A stretch of DNA of 32,764 nt, taken from assembly GCA_021794655.1 (NCBI GenBank), contig JAJYQJ010000150.1, positions 1 through 32,764 of the forward strand, written 5' to 3'. A program made the position numbers and the translations under genes. This stretch comes from Actinomycetes bacterium (GTDB lineage: Bacteria; Actinomycetota; Acidimicrobiia; Acidimicrobiales; RAAP-2). Position 1 is the first letter of the stretch. Each line of letters opens with the position of its first letter. The notes under the pieces were generated by a model. That model had not been told where the DNA came from, ran no database searches, and saw only the letters and a list, made by a program, of their open reading frames with translations. Shown one piece after another: positions 3 through 24,596 of this stretch.

Positions 3-1024
3 CGGGCCTTGACGAGTGGTAGTAAGACCACAATGCCCACCGGAAGCGAAGGGAACCAGGTGACCGAAGACCGTTCGCAGTCACCGCCTGGTCAGGACTC
101 ACTCCTGATCAGTGTTTAGGAACGGTTGAACCTGGTGGTTATCTGCGTGCGGGTGAACCCGCCGTGGGGCGGGATGCCCTTGGCCCTGCCTATCGCGGTG
201 CGTCTCCACCAAAAGGGCGGGGCGACCATGCCCGAGCTGGCCGCCGAGATGATGGTCGCACTTGCGGTTCAGTTACCCGGGGCGTCGTTCGTCTTGTGCG
301 CAGACGGGGCCTATGCAACCTTGGCCGGCGCTGGTCTTCAGCACCGTCGTCGTCAGCCGGATGCGTCGCGATGCGGCCCTCTACTTGGCGGCCCCGCCCA
401 AGACCGGTAAGAGGGGAAGGCCGAGGACCAAGGGCAAGCGGCTCTGCACCCCAAAGGTCCGCTCCACCCGCTTGAGACGCAAGGACTTCACATTGACAAC
501 CTGTGAGTTCAGGGGATCAAAGGTGGAGAAGCTCTTGTGGTCGACCGACGTGCTCTGGCACCGGGTCAGCCCCACCGCCATGGTCCGCCTCGTCATCGTG
601 CGTGACCCCACTGGACGCGAGCCAGACGACTACTTCTTCACCACCGACCTCACGATATCAGCTGTCGATGTGCTTTCGACCTACGCCGGAAGATGGAGCA
701 TTGAGATCGCGTACAGAGATGTCAAACAGATCGTTCGAGGTCACCAACCCCAGTCATGGAAGGGCGAGGGTCCCGAGCGCGCCGCCGGCCTTTCATTCTG
801 GCTCTACAGCGCGGTGTGGGTCTGGTATCTCGACGTCTGTGGCAAGCCCAGGCTTCGCTGTCACGCCGTGGTTCACCAAGAAGTCCACCCCGTCATTCGC
901 TGACGCGTTGGCCGAGCTGCGCCGCACGCTGTGGCATGAACGTATTTCTCCCACTTCCGACGGTGCCCCGCTCAACGCACAAACCGTGAAGATATTGGTG
1001 GAGGCACTCGCCGTGGCTGCATAG
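3..1024 (+). pseudogene. IS701-like transposase, decayed (frameshifted, 5' end outside or degraded)
   Basis: The coding signal runs through three frames. Residues typical of IS701-type DDE transposases appear first in the frame of 126-~335 (NPPWGGMPLALPIAVRLH, then LCADGAYATL with a catalytic-type Asp), continue in the frame of ~340-842 (KTGKRGRPRTKGKRL, then DDYFFTTDL and RWSIEIAYRDVKQ, which carries the catalytic Glu), and end in a third frame at 1022-1024 (FADALAELRRTLWHERI). At least two frameshifts, near 335 and near 845-865, are needed to rebuild one protein, and a stop at 117-119 blocks the first frame upstream. The first catalytic Asp region is not recognisable. I did not see terminal inverted repeats, so the element's ends are undefined. 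The family call rests on motif order; the pseudogene call is read directly from the frames. Confidence 0.8.
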
Positions 1025-4727: not shown

Positions 4728-6041
4728 TCATTCGTCCCCGACCACTCTCAGGACTCCTCCCACCCTGTCTACGACGTCTAAGTTACCGAGCTCCACCAGC
4801 GTCGCCGCGACGTCACCTTCTCGCGCCACGTGAGTAAGAAAAATCAGCCGCGCCTCGGATCCCAGTCCAACTTGTTCCATCACGCGAATCGACACCCCGT
4901 TCTTTCCAAACACCGTCGCGACCGACGCGAGCACTCCGGGTCGGTCGACGACCTCGACGCTCATGTAGAACGCAGATCTCAACTCCTCTCGCGGCCAGAC
5001 CTCCATCGGCGCCCTGCGGGGCTGTGGGCCAAACGTACCAGCCGACAGATTTCTCGCCGCGTCGATAACGTCGCCCAACACCGCACTCGCCGCCGCGGCT
5101 CCCCCCGCCCCGGGGCCGTAGAACATGAGCTCTCCACAACCGTCTCCTTCGACAAAGACCGCGTTGAAGGCACCCCTCACCGACGCTAGGGGATGCGTTC
5201 GGGGCACCATAGCTGGATGGACTCTCACCGAGATAGACGGACCACCATCGAGCAGTTCAGCGATAGCGAGGAGTTTGACTACGTAGCCGAGCTTTCGCGC
5301 GAACTCGACGTCGACGGCCCGGACGCCGGTGATCCCTTCTCGATGGACGTCTGTGCCGTTCACGTCACAGCCAAACGCGAGCGACGCGAGGATCGCCGCC
5401 TTCGACGCCGCGTCGTCTCCGCCTACGTCCGCGGAGGGATCGCGCTCTGCCAACCCAAGCCTTTGAGCCTCCGCTAGTGCCGTCTCGTACTCTTCGTCGT
5501 CTTCATCCATCCTCGTCAAGATGAAGTTCGTCGTCCCGTTCACGATCCCCATCACCCGTTCGATGTGCTCTCCCGCGAGCGACTCCCGCAGCGGACGTAC
5601 TACCGGGATCGCACTCGCGACCGCCGCTTCATATAGCAGGTCTACGTGGTTCGCCGACGCGATCTCCGCGAGCTCTCCACCGGCGAACGCCAAGAGAGCC
5701 TTGTTCGCCGTCACAACCGGACGGCCCTCCAAGAGCGCCGCTTCAACCACCGATCTCGCCGGATCGATCCCTCCCATCACCTCCACGACGACGTCCACGT
5801 CATCTCTCGTCGCGAGCCCGATCGCATCGGTCGTGATCAGCGTCCGCGCTATCCCAACCTTCCTCTCGCGTGCCACGTCGGACACCGCGACGCCCGCGAT
5901 CTCAAGCGATATACCTGTCCTCGCCTCGATCTCCGCGGACCTATCCTCGATCATCTCGACGAGCGCCCCGCCAACGTTCCCGCAGCCGAGCACCGCGACA
6001 CGAACCACGTTTGTACTGGGCGCCGCCGACGAAGAAGTCAC
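4728..6041 (-). CDS. hom: Homoserine dehydrogenase with C-terminal ACT domain
   Basis: Reduces aspartate semialdehyde to homoserine with NAD(P)H, the branch point to threonine and methionine. The 437 residues show an N-terminal Rossmann fold ([16 protein letters not shown], about residues 15-30), the catalytic/dimerisation domain with the family signature [15 protein letters not shown] (about 163-178), and a C-terminal ACT domain ([19 protein letters not shown], about 355-430), which in this family senses threonine for feedback control. The start is GTG 6041; it has no ribosome binding site but a TAGCGT box lies exactly 6 bases upstream (6048-6053), consistent with a leaderless mRNA. It is divergent from the regulator-like gene at 6127 with only 85 bases between the starts. 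Confidence 0.95.
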
Positions 6042-9892: not shown

Positions 9893-10216
9893 TCAGGCCG
9901 ACTTCGCGGCCTCGTCGTCCGCCCCCAGCAGCCGGGTCTTGCGGCGGCCCTCGACGATGTTCACTTCGAGCTTTGCGCCGAGTGCCTCGACGTAGTGTTC
10001 GAGTACCTCGATCGTCACGTTCTGCGAGCGTTCGATGGCGGCGACGCGTGGCTGGGAGACGCCCAGGCGCTCCGCGAGCTCACGCTGGCTTAGTCCAGCG
10101 CCTTCACGCAACGCCGTGAGCCGGCTGGCGAGAAGGAGTTCCTGTTCGATCTCGGCCACTCGTTCCTCGGCGCCTTCTGGCGCAAGGACCCGCTTTTCCC
10201 AGTCTCGTAGGCTCAT
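9893..10216 (-). CDS. HigA-like antitoxin, XRE-family HTH
   Basis: A 107-residue DNA-binding protein. The helix-turn-helix is clear at about residues 35-75 ([20 protein letters not shown] followed by QPRVAAIERSQNVTIEVLEH), with an N-terminal helical part (RDWEKRVLAPEGAEERVAEI) and a C-terminal GAKLEVNIVEGRR strand typical of antitoxins paired with HigB/Gp49-like toxins. ATG 10216 overlaps the toxin's stop (ATGA), the order being toxin first, as in higBA. The gene looks intact while its toxin is frameshifted. It would repress the operon and, with a working toxin, neutralise it. Confidence 0.85.
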   Translation of the reverse strand: MSLRDWEKRVLAPEGAEERVAEIEQELLLASRLTALREGAGLSQRELAERLGVSQPRVAAIERSQNVTIEVLEHYVEALGAKLEVNIVEGRRKTRLLGADDEAAKSA

Positions 10217-10616
10217 TGTCCCTTCCTTTCCCTTCTTCCCTTCGTCTGACCTCGCTCGGCGTTCATCCCTCCGAGATGGGCGTTGTAGCGCTCGTCCGCG
10301 ATCGGCACGTTCAGCTCGTACCACTTCGACCATGCGTTCGACTTGTCGCCCCCGACGAGCAGGATTGCCTGCCGCTTCGGATCGAACGCGAAGAGGACTC
10401 TCATCTCCGTCCGTCCTGTGGATCCGGGCCGCAGCTCCTTCATGTTCTTGTGCCGACTGCCCTTCACCGAGTCGACAAGCGGGCGACCGAGCGCCGGACC
10501 GTGGTTCGGAGGACGCGAACGGCAGCCAACAGCGCTTCGGCGTCGGCTTGATCGAGGTCGTCGACCCACCTCTCGAATGTCAGATCGAACTCGACCTCCC
10601 ACGATCGTCCCGGCAC
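10213..10616 (-). pseudogene. HigB-like toxin (Gp49/RelE superfamily), frameshifted
   Basis: The N-terminal part is in the frame from GTG 10616 (WEVEFDLTFERWVDDLDQAD, then AEALLAAVRVLR), and the rest is in the frame ending at 10213 (NHGPALGRPLVDSVKGSRHK, MKELRPGS, VLFAFDPKRQAILLVGGDKS, YELNVPIADERYNAHL). The two parts join near 10506-10508, where one missing base explains the shift; together they give the normal ~125-130 residues of a HigB-type mRNA interferase. A TATCGT box lies 6 bases before the GTG (10623-10628), within the inverted repeat CGATAA-N8-TTATCG (10618-10637), the probable autoregulatory operator. A sequencing error or programmed frameshift cannot be excluded, but the site is not a slippery homopolymer. 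Confidence 0.75.
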
Positions 10617-10617
10617 G

Positions 10618-10637
10618 CGATAACGATACCATTATCG
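10618..10637 (-). promoter_or_regulatory. Operator-like inverted repeat upstream of the higBA-type pair
   Basis: CGATAA (10618-10623) and TTATCG (10632-10637) form an inverted repeat with an 8-base centre, directly before the toxin's GTG (10616). It overlaps a TATCGT -10 candidate on the minus strand (10623-10628). The position fits autoregulation by the HigA-like protein. Confidence 0.5.
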
Positions 10638-11003
10638 ACTCCCAGCGCGGAACATCGTTGGCACTTGCCACGGTCTCTCACTGGTAGTGCTCGGTACCGT
10701 ATCGCCAACGTGGGCCAGTTCTAACGGCGGGAGCGCTGGGAGAACGATGCGAAAGTGGCCCACGATCGGGCGAATAGACCCCGTAGGTTGCCCCGGCGCC
10801 TCAGGTGCGTTACTATGGTGTCAATCCAATAGCGCCTCGAAGCGGAAGCTGCGACTCGATCCGGAGATCCAGATAACGTTGTCGTAGCGGATGGACGTGG
10901 GGGTGGTTCGGTGGACCGCTGATACCTATCCCAACTTCCCGTTTTTCCCGAAGAGCGCGGTGCACGTGCATACGCGAGTCATTTCACAAGATTGAGGAGG
11001 CCG
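10638..11003 (+). promoter_or_regulatory. Intergenic region and leader of rho, with candidate promoter at 10788-10816
   Basis: About 370 bases without a convincing gene. The best promoter candidate is TTGCCC (10788-10793), a 17-base spacer and TACTAT (10811-10816), which would give a leader of about 180 bases before rho. Long leaders are common for rho genes, which limit their own expression by early termination; I see no clear hairpin-plus-T-run here. The ribosome site GAGGAGG lies at 10994-11000. A 66-codon frame at 10687-10887 has no family features and I do not regard it as a gene. Confidence 0.4.
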
Positions 11004-16898: not shown

Positions 16899-17513
16899 GT
16901 GATTGAGACGGGTACCCAAGCGGACGCTCTCCGGGCGTTGTCCGATGGTGAGGTGGTCGCTATTCCAACCGATACGGTCTATGGATTGGCAGCCCGGCTG
17001 GACCGTCCTCGTGCGATCGAGTCAATCTTCGCGATCAAGATGAGGCCTCATGACCAGTCGCTTCCCGTCCTGATCGGCCGGATCAAGCAGCTCGACTCTG
17101 TCGTCGCCGAGTGGCCGAGAGCCGCGCGCCAGTTAGCGAACCGGTTTTGGCCAGGAGCGATCACCCTCGTCGTTCCTGCCCGCCCCGACGTCGGCGAGTT
17201 AGTCGGAGGGTCGGGCGAGACCATAGGGGTACGGCTACCACGAAATCGGATCGCACGGTCGCTAATCAAGAAAGCAGGTCCACTCGTCGTCACCAGTGCG
17301 AACCTTCACGGTCAACCCGAAAGCACGACTTCGTTAGATGTCGCCGACAGCTTTGTGGGAGGCCAGGACGATCGCTCGTCTCCCGTTCTCGTGCTCGACG
17401 GCGGGACCTGTGCCTCCGCGCCCTCCACCGTCGTCGACTGCACCGTCTCTCCGCCCATGTGCATTAGGGAAGGTGGAGTGCCGTGGTCGTGGGTCGAGGC
17501 GGCCTTGCGCTGA
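16899..17513 (+). CDS. tsaC: L-threonylcarbamoyladenylate synthase (TsaC/Sua5/YrdC family)
   Basis: Makes threonylcarbamoyl-AMP from threonine, bicarbonate and ATP for the t6A modification of ANN-decoding tRNAs. The 204 residues are the YrdC domain: GEVVAIPTDTVYGLAARL (nucleotide and threonine site), IFAIKMRPHDQSLPVLIG (KxR...P motif), WPGAITLVVPA, IGVRLPRN and the closing VVTSANLHGQPE. I choose GTG 16899 because GGGGGAG lies just upstream; the frame open from 16818 adds residues without family character. The C-terminal ~25 residues (CIREGGVPW) finish the fold; no separate Sua5 domain is present. Confidence 0.93.
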   Translation: MIETGTQADALRALSDGEVVAIPTDTVYGLAARLDRPRAIESIFAIKMRPHDQSLPVLIGRIKQLDSVVAEWPRAARQLANRFWPGAITLVVPARPDVGELVGGSGETIGVRLPRNRIARSLIKKAGPLVVTSANLHGQPESTTSLDVADSFVGGQDDRSSPVLVLDGGTCASAPSTVVDCTVSPPMCIREGGVPWSWVEAALR

Positions 17514-17567
17514 GATAGCTGCGATAGGCTTAGATATGGTGAGAACGATCGCGACGCGGGATTAGAT

Positions 17568-17975
17568 GTGGTCGGTGTACGACGGGGAGCGCTTCCCATC
17601 GCTCAAGTTGCCGAGCGAATAGCTCACTCGCTCAAGGAAGGTCAAGAACGGACCGCCTGGCGATGGTTGATGCAATTCATCGATGATTTCAGCGGCTCCT
17701 CGCCAAGAGGGCGCGCGTCTCTGGTGCGAGATCCGCCTGCCGAGTTCACCGGTGATCGGCGCTACGACGCTGCTCTCGCCGCGTTGGTGGAGCATCTGTG
17801 TGTGAAGGTTGACGTCACAATTCCATCTTGGACCGATGATCCGCGGTGCTTCGCTGAGCCGTGGTGGTTTGTCGCGGGGTTGCCCGGCTATCGCGCCGTT
17901 GCACTGCGCGACAGCCCGATCTCCTTTAAACGTCACGGAGTCTTCGTTACGAAAAATGCGCTTGACCGCGTCTGA
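17568..17975 (+). CDS. Uncharacterised protein, partner of a nucleotidyltransferase
   Basis: A 135-residue protein of no named function. It resembles small actinobacterial proteins that stand directly upstream of DUF6036-type nucleotidyltransferase genes: an N-terminal helical part (AERIAHSLKEGQERTAWRWL), a segment RRYDAALAALVEHLCVK, and the conserved C-terminus with PSWTDDPRCFAEPWWFVAG followed by SPISFKRHGVFVTKNAL. Start GTG 17568 follows a nine-codon open frame at 17536-17565. The nucleotidyltransferase begins 22 bases downstream. By analogy this would be the second component of a toxin-antitoxin-like pair; that is inference from position and pairing only. Confidence 0.6.
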   Translation: MVGVRRGALPIAQVAERIAHSLKEGQERTAWRWLMQFIDDFSGSSPRGRASLVRDPPAEFTGDRRYDAALAALVEHLCVKVDVTIPSWTDDPRCFAEPWWFVAGLPGYRAVALRDSPISFKRHGVFVTKNALDRV

Positions 17976-17997
17976 TCTCTTTGGTTCAGCAGAGATC

Positions 17998-18357
17998 ATG
18001 TTCGCGTTTGACAATTTAGCGTCCGAGTTGGCCCGGCGCCGTGTCAGGGGAGAGCTGTTCGTTGTCGGCGGATCTACTGTCGCGCTCGTTTACGAATCGG
18101 AACGCACGACACGTGACGTAGATGCCGTGTTCTTGAACAGGTGCCTGCCCAATCTCGAAATTCCTCGAAAAACTGCCGATCTGCTAAATGAGCTCTTCGG
18201 CCCCGAAGCAGGTGAGCGAGGTGAGCGAAGTGGAGGGCCAGCGCGTGGGAGTGACCGCATTGCTAGTGTCCGGTGCAGGGAATGTGGTCGGATCTTGCGG
18301 TCGCACTCGAGTATCTTGGCCGGTGTTGGGCCTAAGTGCGCTCAAAGGGCGCGCTAG
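17998..18357 (+). CDS. Truncated DUF6036-like nucleotidyltransferase joined to a DUF6011-like zinc motif
   Basis: The 119-residue frame starts as a nucleotidyltransferase: ELFVVGGSTVALVYESE followed by TTRDVDAVF, i.e. the GGS helix and the Asp-x-Asp metal site. After about residue 45 the expected rest of the fold (another 80-120 residues) is absent. Instead the frame passes through a Gly/Glu/Arg-rich stretch and ends with CRECGRILRSHSSILAGVGP, then KCAQRAR, whose CxxC...GxGPxCA pattern resembles the small DUF6011 zinc-binding motif. This looks like a deletion or recombination that joined the 5' end of one gene to the 3' end of another. A programmed chimeric protein is less likely. ATG 17998 is preferred over the longer frame from 17809, which is a shadow of the upstream gene. 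Confidence 0.55.
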   Translation: MFAFDNLASELARRRVRGELFVVGGSTVALVYESERTTRDVDAVFLNRCLPNLEIPRKTADLLNELFGPEAGERGERSGGPARGSDRIASVRCRECGRILRSHSSILAGVGPKCAQRAR

Positions 18358-18419
18358 GGCGAGGAAACAGTGCACGACGTGTACGACGTGTCGACTGTCC
18401 CAAGACCTGCTTTCACGCG

Positions 18420-19973
18420 CTACGCGAGGGTGAGTACGCCGTTCTCTTGCAGGGTGCCGGTTCTGCCACAACCTTCCGATGTCGTGATCGATTCTAACGA
18501 GTCGGGATCGGTGATGTTCGCCCACGTCCTCCTCCCGTCGTCGAAGACGCACGCGACGATCGCTCGCTCCGGCGCCCCCTCGCGGTCGTAGGTGACGGCG
18601 TACGTCTCGATCACGACCGCACCGACAGCGGAGGAGTCCACGCTCCTCTGGGGGAGTGAGTCGACTTCATCCTGCACGTCTCTCCATCTGAAACCATCTA
18701 CCCCGTCGTGCGCCGGCGGCCTCGACGCGAAGACCCCGATCGAGTGTTTCGTCGCGTACCAACCGAGCCCCGTCACCAACCCTACCGATCCCGGCTCCTC
18801 GCGTAGCTTCGTCACCACAGACGCAATCGCGTGTGACGTGTAGTTGTTGCCCGGACCCCCGCCGAATGTCAGCCCCCCCGTCAACGTGAGCGGTCTCGCC
18901 GGGTCGTCTATTCGCAGGCCTAGTTCGTGCGCCGCGATCTGTACCGCGCACGGAAAGCACGAGTACAAGTCGATCAGACCGACGTCGTCTATTCCAACTC
19001 CGGCCATCTCCAGCGCGGCGCGTCCCGCCAAGTGGATCGCCGGTGATCTGTGGAGCTCCATTCGATGAGACAAGAACCAGTGGTCGTGGGCGTCCGCCCC
19101 CGCTAAGGGAAAGATGAGACGTTCCTTTGGAACTCCAGCGCTGAGTGCCGCTTCGAGCGAGCAGACGATGTATCCAGCGCCTTGGTCAACCTGCAAGTTC
19201 GCCGTACACAACTTCGTGTAGGGAAACGTGACCATCCGATTCGACGCGGTTGCCTCGACGATCTCCTCTGGACTCTTGAACTCGCGAATCCACGCGTACG
19301 GGTTGGACGCCGCGACCTTCGAGAACGACGACCAAAGGCGGCCGATCCGTGCGCGATGTTCCTCGACGCTCCACCCGTTCGCTCCCCGCAACGCATTCTC
19401 CAATAGCGGGTACGCGTGGATCGGAAGCATGATCCCGCGTTCGAGCTCGAAGTTCGTAACCGGCGGTCGATCCGTCCCAAACTCGACCGGCTCCGGCGTC
19501 GACTCAGCAGGCTGAGTCGGCCAGTTGAGCGATCGCCCTCCGGGTTGTCGGAGGGCAGCCGAGTGGGTGTACATGCACTCCGCACCGGTAACCGCGACGA
19601 CGTCCATCTCGCCCCTTGAGATCGATAGAGCGCTCGCGTGCAGGATCGACTCCGGGTTGTTCCCGCCAACTCCAGAGAGTACGAACTCCCGGGGTTCTAT
19701 CCCTAGAATTTGTGCGACGCTAAGCGCCGGATTCTTCGTCCGCCATCCGAGCGGAGCGACGACTCGAAGGCTGGAGGCACGCCGGAGGAGTCTGTCGCCA
19801 ACCGACGCGGCCCCCCCTGGGTTAGACCCGCCACAGTCCTCAGCTGCCAATCGAAGTGCCCGCGCCATCAGCGCTGATGGATCGGGTCGATCGATGAGTT
19901 CGACGTCAGGATCGGGGAGGTTCGTCACCTGCCCGACTCCGGCGATCACCGGCGTTCTTAGATCTAGCACCAT
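18420..19973 (-). CDS. Thiolase-like acyl-CoA enzyme without the usual nucleophilic cysteine
   Basis: A 517-residue thiolase-superfamily protein of the SCP2/acetyl-CoA acetyltransferase-like group. Seen: start TPVIAGVGQVTN, VLSGVGGNNPESILHASALS where standard thiolases have the reactive CxSG, the VVAVTGAECMYTHSA strand, IDDVGLIDLYSCFPCAVQIA with His-containing AAHELGL, and GGLTFGGGPGNNYTSHAIAS, the C-terminal His loop. A ~100-residue C-terminal extension (DGFRWRDVQDEVDSLPQRSV and beyond) is also typical of this mycobacterial-type group. Because the nucleophile position reads GGNNP, ordinary thiolysis is doubtful. ATG 19973 is chosen; a TACGCT box is 8 bases upstream (19982-19987). It faces away from rpiB and is unrelated to its neighbours in function. 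Confidence 0.8.
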   Translation of the reverse strand: MVLDLRTPVIAGVGQVTNLPDPDVELIDRPDPSALMARALRLAAEDCGGSNPGGAASVGDRLLRRASSLRVVAPLGWRTKNPALSVAQILGIEPREFVLSGVGGNNPESILHASALSISRGEMDVVAVTGAECMYTHSAALRQPGGRSLNWPTQPAESTPEPVEFGTDRPPVTNFELERGIMLPIHAYPLLENALRGANGWSVEEHRARIGRLWSSFSKVAASNPYAWIREFKSPEEIVEATASNRMVTFPYTKLCTANLQVDQGAGYIVCSLEAALSAGVPKERLIFPLAGADAHDHWFLSHRMELHRSPAIHLAGRAALEMAGVGIDDVGLIDLYSCFPCAVQIAAHELGLRIDDPARPLTLTGGLTFGGGPGNNYTSHAIASVVTKLREEPGSVGLVTGLGWYATKHSIGVFASRPPAHDGVDGFRWRDVQDEVDSLPQRSVDSSAVGAVVIETYAVTYDREGAPERAIVACVFDDGRRTWANITDPDSLESITTSEGCGRTGTLQENGVLTLA

Positions 19974-20578: not shown

Positions 20579-22077
20579 TCAGTGATCGTGACCACGACCC
20601 GCGCGACGCGCACGACCGCGGAGTCCGACGTCGAGACGACGGTCCTTTTGCGCATTGGTTGGACAGTGACCCTCACGTCGCCCGCCTTCTCGACGCAGAG
20701 ATGGACCGTGAGTCCTCTACCCTCCAGCTGATCGCGTCAGAGAACTTCACCTCACGAGCCGTCCTCGCTGCGACCGGCTCTATCTTGACCAACAAGTACG
20801 CGGAGGGGTATCCCGGGAGGCGCTACTACGGCGGGAACGAGATCGTCGACGAGGTCGAAGAGCTCGCCAGGCAGCGAGCCGTCGCGCTCTTCGGGGCCGA
20901 CCACGCAAACGTCCAACCCCACGCCGGCGCGAACGCGAACCTCGCCGCCTACCAGGCCCTGTTGGAACCCGGCGACACAGTCTTGGCGATGCGCCTCGAC
21001 CACGGCGGGCATCTCACCCACGGGTCCCCGGCATCGATCACCTCCAAGATATGGCGGTTCGTCGCCTACGGCGTCACTCCCGCTCGAGACACCGGCGGCG
21101 ACGGAAGCGGTCACGGTCACGAGAGCGTCGGCGGTCACGAGAGCGTCGGCGGTCACGAGAGCGTCGGCGAGGTAATCGACTTCGACCAAGTCGCCGACTT
21201 GGCCAACTCCGAGCGCCCCAAGCTGATCGTCGCCGGATCGACCGCCTACGCGAGGCAGATCGACCCACAGCCCTTCAGGGAGATCGCGGACTCCGTCGGC
21301 GCGTTGTTCATGTTCGACGCCGCCCACCCCGCGGGCCTGATCGCAGGTGGCGCTCATCCAAATCCCGCCCGACTCGCCGACGTGATGACGTTCACGACCC
21401 ACAAGACCTTGCGCGGCCCAAGAGGTGGTGCAATTCTCTGCCGCTCCGACCTCGCAAAGAAGATCGACAGCGCCGTCTTTCCCGGGCTCCAAGGCGGTCC
21501 ACTCGAACACGTCATCGCCGCAAAGGCCGTCGCCTTCGCCGAGGCCGCGACCCCCGACTTCGCCGCCTACGCCCATCAGGTCGTCGACAACGCACGTAAA
21601 CTCGCAACAGCTCTCGCAAACGAGGGTTTCCGGCTCGTCTCCGGCGGGACCGACAACCACATGGTCCTCGTCGACCTGCGCACCTTCGACGCCGACCTCA
21701 CAGGAAAAGAGGCCCAAGAGGTCCTCGATCAAGCCGGCATAACGTGTAACCGCAACACGATCCCAGACGACCCTCGTTCGCCGTTCGTCACCTCCGGTCT
21801 CCGTCTCGGTACCGCCGCCGAGACGACCGCCGGAATGGGTCCTGACGAGATGGTCCTGATCGCAACCTTGATAGGTAGGACGCTTCGCAACAGAGCCGAC
21901 GACGGCGTCGTCTCGACGACGCGAAAAGAAGTAGCCGAGCTCTGTCGCTCCTTCCCGCCGTACCCACCCGCCGCTTCGGGTGTGTCGGGTTCGTCGGGTG
22001 TGTCGGGTTCGTCGGGTTCGTCGGGTTCGTCGGGTTCGTCGGGTTCGTCGGGTTCGTCGGGTTCGTCCCGGAGTTGA
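20575..22077 (+). CDS. glyA: Serine hydroxymethyltransferase with in-frame repeat insertions
   Basis: PLP enzyme that moves the serine hydroxymethyl group to tetrahydrofolate, giving glycine and methylene-THF. At 500 residues it is longer than the usual 415-440. Core motifs: [53 protein letters not shown], and [14 protein letters not shown] with the PLP lysine at about residue 277. Two repeats explain the extra length: three exact 18-base units (21115-21168) encode GHESVG three times at about residues 181-198, and ten 9-base units (21976-22065) give an SGS/SGV tail after the natural end. GTG 20575 has a good AAGGGAG site. It is coupled to rpiB. Confidence 0.95.
21115..21168 (+). repeat. Three exact 18-bp tandem units inside glyA
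   Basis: GGTCACGAGAGCGTCGGC is repeated three times without a mismatch (21115, 21133, 21151), encoding GHESVG each time. The repeats lie in a loop region between the substrate/cofactor segments of the enzyme. The exact identity at the base level, including third positions, points to recent slippage or unequal exchange. Confidence 0.95.
21976..22065 (+). repeat. Ten 9-bp tandem units at the 3' end of glyA
   Basis: Ten units of TCGGGTTCG, of which the first and third read TCGGGTGTG, follow each other without gap. They encode a Ser/Gly-rich tail of about 30 residues that is not part of the enzyme fold. The unit count is likely to vary between strains. Confidence 0.95.
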
Positions 22078-23693: not shown

Positions 23694-23972
23694 ATGACAC
23701 GAGAAGGTCCGGCGGACTCGGACTCGGACTCGGACTCGGACTCAGACTCGGACTCGGACTCGGGTCAACCTCGCTCGAATCGCGAACCCAAGTTGGGCGA
23801 CCTCTTCTGGGTGGGAACCGGCGTTGCGCTCTGTGTGGTCGGGGGAGGCGCCGCGGGATACGCAATCGACGCCGCGGCTCACAGCTCGCCATGGGCGACG
23901 TTCGGGGGGCTCGGCTTCGGCATCGTCTTGGCGGTGCTCCTCACCGTATCCCAGGTGCGAAAGTACCTATGA
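23694..23972 (+). CDS. AtpZ/AtpI-type small membrane protein, first gene of the ATP synthase operon
   Basis: A 92-residue protein with two predicted membrane helices (FWVGTGVALCVVGGGAAGYA and FGGLGFGIVLAVLLTVSQV), as in AtpZ-type proteins that accompany F-type ATP synthases and may help with ion supply or assembly. Residues 7-24 are a (Asp-Ser) repeat encoded by eight 6-base units GACTCG (23715-23762, one variant GACTCA). The hydrophilic N-terminus before the first helix is where this tract lies, so it would be on the cytoplasmic side. The next gene starts 30 bases later. Confidence 0.75.
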   Translation: MTREGPADSDSDSDSDSDSDSDSGQPRSNREPKLGDLFWVGTGVALCVVGGGAAGYAIDAAAHSSPWATFGGLGFGIVLAVLLTVSQVRKYL

Positions 23973-24002: not shown

Positions 24003-24596
24003 ATGTTCGCCGTCTTCGATCGCTTCTCACTTCCGGATTTGGCCCAACTGTCAAAGAGGACAGTAATAGGTGCGCTCGTCATCGGTGTCGTCGGACTCGT
24101 CTTCTGCCTAGTTCTCGGAGCCGCCCTCGCGGGCGTCGGTCTCTGCATCGGGCTCGGGCTCGGCATATCCAACTTCAGAATGATCCATTCGTCGGTCGCG
24201 AAAGTCGGGGCGAGGATGGACGAGAACAAGCGTCGCCCGCTCGTCTTTAACACGATGGGTCGGTTAGCCGTCGTCTCCGTCATCGCCTTGGGGCTGACGT
24301 TCATCTCGTTTGATCTCGGGCTTGGGGTGATGGGCGGTCTCGCACTTTTCCAGTTCTTGTTGCTCCTTAACGTCACACGTTCCATGTTGCGCCCGGTCGA
24401 CGGCACGGTAGCGGTAATCGACGCCGACTCCCACGACATCTCCCACGACATCTCCCACGACATCTCCCACGACGTCTCTGGCGGCGTCGACTCCAACGGC
24501 TCTGGCTCTCATGGCACAGTTACTGGTGACGCACTCAGCCCCCTCGCGAAGCCTGGCTCGGGTTCGACTCACGCTGACGGCGAAGGGTGGCGATAG
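24003..24596 (+). CDS. atpI: ATP synthase subunit I (AtpI) with C-terminal repeat tail
   Basis: A 197-residue protein with four hydrophobic helices (ALVIGVVGLVFCLVLGAALA; LCIGLGLGISNF; LAVVSVIALGLTFISF; LGVMGGLALFQFLLLL), as in the AtpI/ATP-synt_I family that assists assembly of the c-ring. The ~60-residue C-terminal tail is unusual: four 12-base units TCCCACGACATC (24429-24476, the last ending GTC) encode SHDI three times and SHDV, followed by a Ser/Gly-rich end. Its stop is four bases before the GTG of atpB. Confidence 0.8.
   Translation: MFAVFDRFSLPDLAQLSKRTVIGALVIGVVGLVFCLVLGAALAGVGLCIGLGLGISNFRMIHSSVAKVGARMDENKRRPLVFNTMGRLAVVSVIALGLTFISFDLGLGVMGGLALFQFLLLLNVTRSMLRPVDGTVAVIDADSHDISHDISHDISHDVSGGVDSNGSGSHGTVTGDALSPLAKPGSGSTHADGEGWR

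What the first reader, a model, noticed from the sequence alone, without database searches (positions are those of the whole stretch)
17568..18357. Second nucleotidyltransferase pair, its last third replaced by a zinc-binding DUF6011-like motif
The nucleotidyltransferase keeps its active-site motifs but stops after about 45 residues, then continues in frame into CxxCGR...GVGPxCA. Either a deletion has fused two genes or this is an unusual short nucleotidyltransferase with a zinc tail. The upstream partner is intact and belongs to a little-studied family.
Basis: partly seen in the sequence, partly recalled or inferred. Interest (0 to 1): 0.5.

Follow-up and report, generated by a model that had tools for sequence, protein, structure and literature searches.

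The report
Gutted toxin-like gene with zinc tail
A bacterial gene resembling a toxin enzyme has lost its middle half, including catalytic parts, in a clean in-frame deletion, while the protein encoded just upstream, probably its antidote, is intact; similar losses recur in related bacteria, and this particular copy is most likely a dead toxin.

Summary
One ORF (17956-18357, +) really joins the start of a nucleotidyltransferase (NTase) to a DUF6011 zinc motif, but its last third was not replaced. Against six near relatives the window lacks a net 93 residues from the middle (279 nt, in frame, junction 18132/18133); the NTase's own C-terminal end is kept and the tail follows it. The lost part holds 8 of 11 invariant positions and the residues aligned with MenT1 K137 and D152, so the remnant is very probably catalytically dead. 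The upstream partner is intact.

Relatives form a two-gene cassette, mostly in Actinomycetota, also on plasmids; the full-length NTase resembles MenT1. Of 101 intact partners 26 lack an intact NTase; of 97 intact NTases 1 lacks an intact partner. A mycobacterial plasmid fuses both in one protein. This looks like a toxin-antitoxin pair with an undescribed antitoxin; toxicity is untested.

No other examined NTase of this family has a DUF6011 tail, but an unrelated NTase-like protein in an IS1595-type element has (L207), so the tail may be native. The window copy is a decayed member of a known kind.

The parts
17568..17975 (+). Upstream partner gene, 135 aa, intact; probable antitoxin
   Evidence: Matched by tblastn in 73 of 80 named loci that hold the NTase; 0 mismatches at 13 conserved columns, as in 33 of the 50 aligned partners; AlphaFold2 model pLDDT 94, mostly helical
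17956..18357 (+). Whole fused ORF, 133 aa from ATG 17956 (119 aa from ATG 17998), start overlapping the partner's end
17956..18132 (+). Retained N-terminal NTase part with motif I (VVGG) and motif II (TRDVDAVF)
   Evidence: Profile of 17 relatives matches residues 3-60 at 58.8 bits
18132..18133 (+). Deletion junction: net 93 residues (279 nt) missing in frame
   Evidence: Same net size against G291 (cut by its contig end), G161, G191, G166, G293, G326; 92-94 in 16 of 25 relatives measured without selection
18133..18213 (+). Retained C-terminal end of the NTase (LNRCLPNLEIPRKTADLLNELFGPEAG)
   Evidence: C-terminal profile E 4e-8, 0 of 20,000 shuffles; L097 local alignment RCYIPDASIPDHTMELLAQMF
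18214..18264 (+). Linker, with GGTGAGCGA twice in a row at its start (one copy begins in the previous feature's last codons or just after)
   Evidence: Read from the sequence
18265..18348 (+). DUF6011 zinc-type motif CRECGR...GVGPKCA, in frame
   Evidence: PF19474 above cut-off

Best explanation
The locus is a toxin-antitoxin-like cassette whose toxin has been inactivated. Full-length relatives encode a MenT1-like nucleotidyltransferase, probably one that adds nucleotides to an RNA such as the tRNA acceptor end (inferred), and a small helical partner upstream that probably neutralises it (inferred from gene-loss asymmetry). In this genome an in-frame deletion of 279 nt removed the central half of the NTase, including strands of the core, the conserved lysine and the acidic residues of motifs III and IV (shown by comparison). 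What remains is motifs I and II, the C-terminal helix and a DUF6011 zinc tail. The product very probably cannot fold as an NTase or catalyse (inferred). The intact partner survives as an orphan antitoxin (inferred). The zinc tail was probably already on the full-length gene before the deletion (inferred).
For: Deletion: net 93 residues against six relatives, C-terminal end matched at E 4e-8, 0 of 20,000 shuffles; without selecting relatives, 16 of 25 give 92-94, and all nine best-scoring ones give 92 or 93. The lost part (L097 model residues 60-152) holds 8 of 11 invariant columns (W82 L83 N84 D85 K121 R126 D130 L137) and strands 99-104 and 107-111 of the model. K121 and D133 align with residues 136 and 151 of the MenT1 chain sequence, which I read as K137 and D152; K137A and D152A abolish MenT1 toxicity (PMC10435456, passages). 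Motif III and IV substitutions abolish AbiEii toxicity (PMC3985639, passages). Fold of the full-length relative L097: MenT1 is first by Foldseek (prob 1.00, E 2e-3; no PDB match reaches E 0.001) and among the top rows by VIA-align (Z 8.7, 153 aligned, rmsd 5.0, tied with ANT(2'')-Ia). Asymmetry: 26 of 101 intact partners lack an intact NTase, 1 of 97 intact NTases lacks an intact partner (Fisher p 8e-8). Relaxed constraint: the window's N-terminal part breaks 4 of 16 conserved columns, the 57 others at most 3; the partner breaks 0 of 13. A second copy in the same genome (C77) has both genes in broken frames. One protein fuses partner and NTase on plasmid pMK12478; a M. intracellulare plasmid copy sits next to RES/Xre and PIN genes.
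Against: No toxicity or neutralisation was tested. The reading frame, the start overlapping the partner and the zinc motif are all intact, which a long-dead pseudogene need not keep. Only one genome of the genus is held, so a mis-assembly cannot be excluded. A first multiple alignment placed residues 61-85 near the middle of the NTase with a 4-residue insertion, and 13 of 81 pairwise alignments favoured a place near the middle; nine of the 25 relatives, all with low scores (11 to 30), place it elsewhere. The mid-region profile gave the real segment no score. ANT(2'') antibiotic adenylyltransferases score as well as MenT1 in the fold comparison.
Confidence: 0.72

Rival explanations
1. The short form is a functional protein: an in-frame mini-NTase with a zinc tail, kept for binding (to RNA, the partner or a full-length toxin) and not for catalysis, for instance as a decoy or regulator.
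For: Deletion exactly in frame, start and zinc motif intact; another in-frame loss (motif I gone) beside an intact partner in G270.
Against: Seen in one genome only; conserved columns of the retained part are eroding (4 of 16); several relatives lose the NTase by frameshifts and stops, which points to plain decay.
Confidence: 0.13
2. Two genes were fused: the NTase lost its stop and reads into a formerly separate downstream DUF6011 gene.
For: No NTase of this family in 80 and 27 loci carries the DUF6011 pattern; a DUF6011 place with an open frame of only 83 aa exists in the order (L208).
Against: The NTase's own C-terminal end precedes the tail, so at most a stop codon was lost; apart from the TTG at the junction itself (18133), no ATG, GTG or TTG lies in frame before the motif (read); another NTase-like protein carries the tail in one ORF.
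Confidence: 0.12
3. Assembly artefact: a collapsed or chimeric join in a draft genome of 155 contigs.
For: Draft of 155 contigs, single assembly, no other genome of the genus held.
Against: The join is exactly in frame between homologous parts of the same gene; no second full-length copy was found in the assembly for it to be collapsed with.
Confidence: 0.06

Closest known systems
MenT1 / MenAT1 of Mycobacterium tuberculosis (PDB 8an4, 8an5)
   Same: The full-length relative L097 shares the fold (Foldseek prob 1.00, E 2e-3) and the family profile aligns at motifs I-II and III-IV; small partner gene upstream
   Different: Partner is about 135 aa and helical, no PDB match at E 0.001; MenA1 is 68 aa (PMC10435456, passages); the window copy lacks the residues aligned with K137 and D152
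AbiEii / DUF1814 NTase toxins (AbiE type IV systems)
   Same: Motif I GG, motif II DhD, motif III K...R and motif IV acidic pair in full-length relatives (motif definitions PMC3985639, passages)
   Different: L097 scores 22.1 bits against a cut-off of 22.5 for Pfam AbiEii, though L144 passes with 30.1; no AbiEi-type match for the partner
DUF6036 (PF19502) nucleotidyltransferase family
   Same: Full-length L097 NTase is above cut-off; plasmid copies are annotated DUF6036
   Different: Window copy is below cut-off and covers profile positions 3-52 of 164
NTase-like protein with DUF6011 tail in L207 (G430)
   Same: In-frame DUF6011 tail, 47% identical over 30 residues
   Different: No Pfam NTase hit, NTase nature read by eye; longer; inside an IS1595-type element with 29-nt inverted repeats

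Membership tests
DUF6036 nucleotidyltransferase (PF19502) | Score over the curated cut-off, window copy | tested here: not met
   22.9 bits against 23.6, positions 3-52 of 164
DUF6036 nucleotidyltransferase (PF19502) | Score over the curated cut-off, full-length relative L097 | tested here: met
   36.3 bits; of the two others tested, L144 passes (25.3) and L065 does not (22.3)
MenT/AbiEii-type NTase toxin | Motifs I and II (hGG...DhD) | tested here: met
   VVGG and DVDAV in the window ORF
MenT/AbiEii-type NTase toxin | Motifs III (K..R) and IV (acidic pair) in the window copy | tested here: not met
   Segment deleted; present in relatives
MenT/AbiEii-type NTase toxin | NTase fold of a full-length relative (L097) | tested here: met
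   Foldseek prob 1.00 to 8an5_B, E 2e-3; VIA Z 8.7, 153 aligned, rmsd 5.0, tied with ANT(2'')-Ia
Toxin-antitoxin pair | Two adjacent co-directional genes conserved together | tested here: met
   96 of 97 intact NTases whose upstream side is not cut by a contig end have an intact partner upstream
Toxin-antitoxin pair | Toxin harms cells and partner neutralises it | not testable with these tools
   Only indirect: asymmetric loss
DUF6011 (PF19474) | Score over the curated cut-off | tested here: met
   36.4 bits against 26.6
DUF6011 (PF19474) | Zinc binding | not testable with these tools
   Cysteine pattern only; a zinc role is inferred

The most novel reading that the evidence does not exclude
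The deletion made, and selection keeps, a non-catalytic zinc-tailed mini-NTase that works with the intact partner as a stand-alone anti-toxin unit, protecting the cell against full-length copies of the same cassette arriving on plasmids; DUF6011 would then be a recurrent targeting tail for NTases.
Probability: 0.1. Interest if true: 0.65.

Novelty: new member of a known kind. Interest (0 to 1): 0.4.

Why it matters
The window copy itself is most likely a dead toxin gene. What it points to is more useful: a cassette seen in Actinomycetota, a few other bacterial MAGs (by record title) and mycobacterial plasmids, in which a MenT1-like nucleotidyltransferase is almost never found intact without an uncharacterised helical partner (1 of 97), while the partner is often found without it (26 of 101). 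That makes the partner a testable candidate for a new antitoxin family, and the natural partner-NTase fusion on a Mycobacterium kansasii plasmid gives a ready handle. No paper in the held open-access library names DUF6036 or DUF6011 or their Pfam numbers.

Tried and rejected
C-terminal replacement: rejected once near relatives were found, because their end block matches window residues 61-86. Before that, wide-family tests were weaker: with an HMM of 90 NTases, 5 of 5,000 shuffles reach the real score for the C-terminal block; pairwise, 61 of 81 best matches lie at the C-terminus and 13 near the middle, and 6 of 300 shuffles give as many C-terminal matches. The profile was built from six relatives chosen after their ends had been seen; one search repeats the measurement on 25 of the 27 relatives (two had no recognisable motif II for my pattern): 16 give 92-94, nine give other values at low scores.

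Frameshift in the window as the cause: the other two frames after 18132 were read by eye in ORF lists and translations (whose output was cut) and show no NTase middle; the own-genome search with the family alignment found no displaced middle beyond the decayed C77 copy and three weak matches.

More NTase-DUF6011 fusions: L207 protein in 396 genomes of the phylum (2 matches, neither with the tail), plasmids (none), viral contigs (none). The window's 119-aa product in phages: none. The NTase alignment in viral contigs: 1 distant locus, not followed. In one search only the best 18 DUF6011 candidates of a genome were scored.

Partner fold: no PDB match at E 0.001 by Foldseek; VIA-align second look best Z 4.7, designed helical and other helical proteins, not taken as relatives; this shows neither a new fold nor a known one.

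Neighbour genes: the Sua5-like query was translated in a wrong frame; one search repeats it with the right one, with the same outcome (no match to any of ten neighbouring window genes in 90 fetched stretches).

Counts: a first count of broken NTases took normal stop codons for lesions and was replaced. One search used 109 of the 128 distinct partner places (recounted); left out were 18 weak places (E 6e-9 to 0.009) and the own-genome C77 copy. The 101 include the window. Outside the 101 are 4 places with an intact partner at a contig end and 4 with a broken partner. In one search, 126 loci reduce to 107 distinct NTases, 7 of them broken, 3 intact with the partner's side cut by a contig end. 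Seven of the 9 absent cases show no remnant that I could see, so an NTase may never have been there; some frameshifts in draft genomes may be sequencing errors. The two sets were gathered with different anchors and are not independent by descent, so the Fisher value is descriptive.

Promoter and terminator scan 17400-18500: none found. Papers seen only as search listings were not used as evidence.

Full report
What is there. The window is one whole contig (C17, 32,764 b) of a draft genome of 2.7 Mb in 155 contigs. Two overlapping genes lie between a Sua5-like gene and a thiolase-like gene (names recalled from the translations): a 135-aa partner (17568-17975) and an ORF of 133 aa (17956-18357; 119 aa from the second ATG at 17998). 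Pfam gives DUF6036, just below cut-off and only for the N-terminal part, and DUF6011 above cut-off for the C-terminus; the partner has only one weak Pfam match, below cut-off, and none in NCBIfam. So the fused ORF exists as described.

What happened to it. Related pairs are common in the family: of 120 genomes, 49 match the fused ORF and 51 match the partner at E 0.01 or better, the weakest of these including chance matches. Wider family tests already leaned to an internal loss, although one multiple alignment placed the segment near the middle. Nearer relatives, found by searching 397 genomes of the order, settle it. Their proteins end in blocks such as LLARYLPGEDVPEATVELLEAMFPG or LLRCYIPDASIPDHTMELLAQMFG. 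The window reads LNRCLPNLEIPRKTADLLNELFGPEAG immediately after TRDVDAVF. Against six relatives (G291, itself cut by its contig end, G161, G191, G166, G293, G326) the missing stretch is a net 93 residues; the profile of their ends matches window residues 61-86 at E 4e-8 (search space of one sequence), and 0 of 20,000 shuffles reach it. I chose these six because of their ends. Without choosing, 16 of the 25 measurable relatives give 92-94 missing residues, among them all nine with the best scores; nine low-scoring ones give other values.

What was lost. In an alignment of 52 full-length relatives, 8 of 11 invariant columns lie in the lost part: WLND, K121, R126, D130, L137 (the lost segment is residues 60-152 of L097). 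In the model of L097 (pLDDT 92) the loss takes strands 99-104 and 107-111, helices 62-76, 86-90, 114-124 and 127-141, and most of 146-154. By sequence profile the best PDB relative is MenT1 (8an4, E 0.0044). Its residues aligned with K121 and D133 stand at 136 and 151 of the chain sequence, which I read as K137 and D152; substitution of either abolishes MenT1 toxicity (PMC10435456, passages read). AbiEii needs its motifs III and IV as well (PMC3985639, passages read). Foldseek puts MenT1 first (prob 1.00, E 2e-3; nothing reaches E 0.001); VIA-align gives MenT1 Z 8.7 (153 aligned, rmsd 5.0), tied with ANT(2'')-Ia. The remnant is thus very likely inactive. Its retained N-terminal part breaks 4 of 16 conserved columns, more than any of 57 other sequences (maximum 3, in three of them), whereas the partner breaks none of 13.

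What the pair is. In the 80 loci from named genomes (the best 80 of 508 confirmed stretches) tblastn finds the partner in 73 and the NTase part of the window in 73, and none of ten other window genes within the fetched flanks of at most 3 kb (which corrects a mis-framed query). The two genes therefore travel as a cassette. By record title most loci are Actinomycetota; a few are labelled Thermoflexus, Dormiibacterota or Fimbriimonadales. Among 109 partner places, 101 have an intact partner and are not cut by a contig end: 75 with an intact NTase, 17 with a broken one, 9 with none recognisable. Among 107 distinct NTases, 97 are intact with the partner's side not cut by a contig end: 96 have an intact partner, 1 a broken one. 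The imbalance (Fisher p 8e-8, descriptive only) is what a toxin and its antitoxin would leave. The NTase lesions are varied: frameshifts (G020, G239, G124), stops (G089), internal deletions out of frame (G140, G240) and an in-frame loss of motif I (G270) (partly by eye). The same genome holds a second pair on C77 with both genes in broken frames. On plasmid pMK12478 of Mycobacterium kansasii one 359-aa protein contains both the partner (E 3e-31) and the NTase (E 2e-47), behind an N-terminal stretch that looks like a helix-turn-helix by eye. On a M. intracellulare plasmid the pair lies next to RES/Xre genes and a PIN-domain gene. Nothing here tests toxicity; the function is inferred.

The zinc tail. 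No DUF6011-like pattern was found in 80 loci (six frames) or 27 loci (three frames) that hold this NTase family; the pattern is narrower than the Pfam model. In the order, DUF6011 above cut-off was found at 7 places in 6 of 397 genomes (the 18 best candidates of each genome were scored). One of the six places other than the window, L207, is the tail of a nucleotidyltransferase-like protein of another kind (GG and DDFDL motifs by eye; no Pfam NTase hit). It sits between 29-nt inverted repeats together with an IS1595-type transposase, so it looks like a transposon passenger. Two relatives of the window's NTase carry a different cysteine-rich tail (L065, L144; 2 of 107 loci). Zinc-type tails thus seem to arise repeatedly on such NTases. 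The simplest order of events is tail first, deletion later, but this is inference.

Verdict. Observation partly confirmed, interpretation partly supported. The window copy is a decayed toxin-like gene beside an intact partner; interest lies in the pair as a candidate toxin-antitoxin family with an undescribed antitoxin. No paper in the held library names DUF6036, DUF6011, PF19502 or PF19474; subscription papers and preprints were not searched.

Noticed in passing
L207 (G430:C139), 706-2544: A nucleotidyltransferase-like gene with a DUF6011 tail lies between 29-nt inverted repeats beside an IS1595-type transposase: it looks like a transposon passenger.
   Followed up: partly
L281 (pMK12478, Mycobacterium kansasii), 1907-2986: One 359-aa protein fuses an N-terminal stretch that looks like a helix-turn-helix, the partner and the NTase.
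   Followed up: partly
L061 (G000:C77), about 4980-5850: Second partner-NTase pair of the same genome, both genes in broken frames.
   Followed up: partly
L065 2917-3660 and L144 3001-3699: Two relatives of the NTase carry another cysteine-rich C-terminal tail (C..G...DG.RC.R....G..CPAHGW).
   Followed up: partly
L270 (G270:C7): In-frame loss of the first 35 or so NTase residues (motif I) beside an intact partner: a second in-frame inactivation.
   Followed up: partly
   Followed up: partly
window 9893-10671, - strand: Small ORF followed by an HTH-like ORF, looks like a HigBA-type pair by eye.
   Followed up: no
window 21114-21169, 21976-22067, 23713-23763, 24428-24478: Short tandem repeats inside open reading frames, giving in-frame amino-acid repeats (glyA-like gene and genes before the ATP-synthase genes, names by eye).
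   Followed up: no
window 262-903: ORF that looks like a transposase fragment at the contig's left end (by eye).
   Followed up: no
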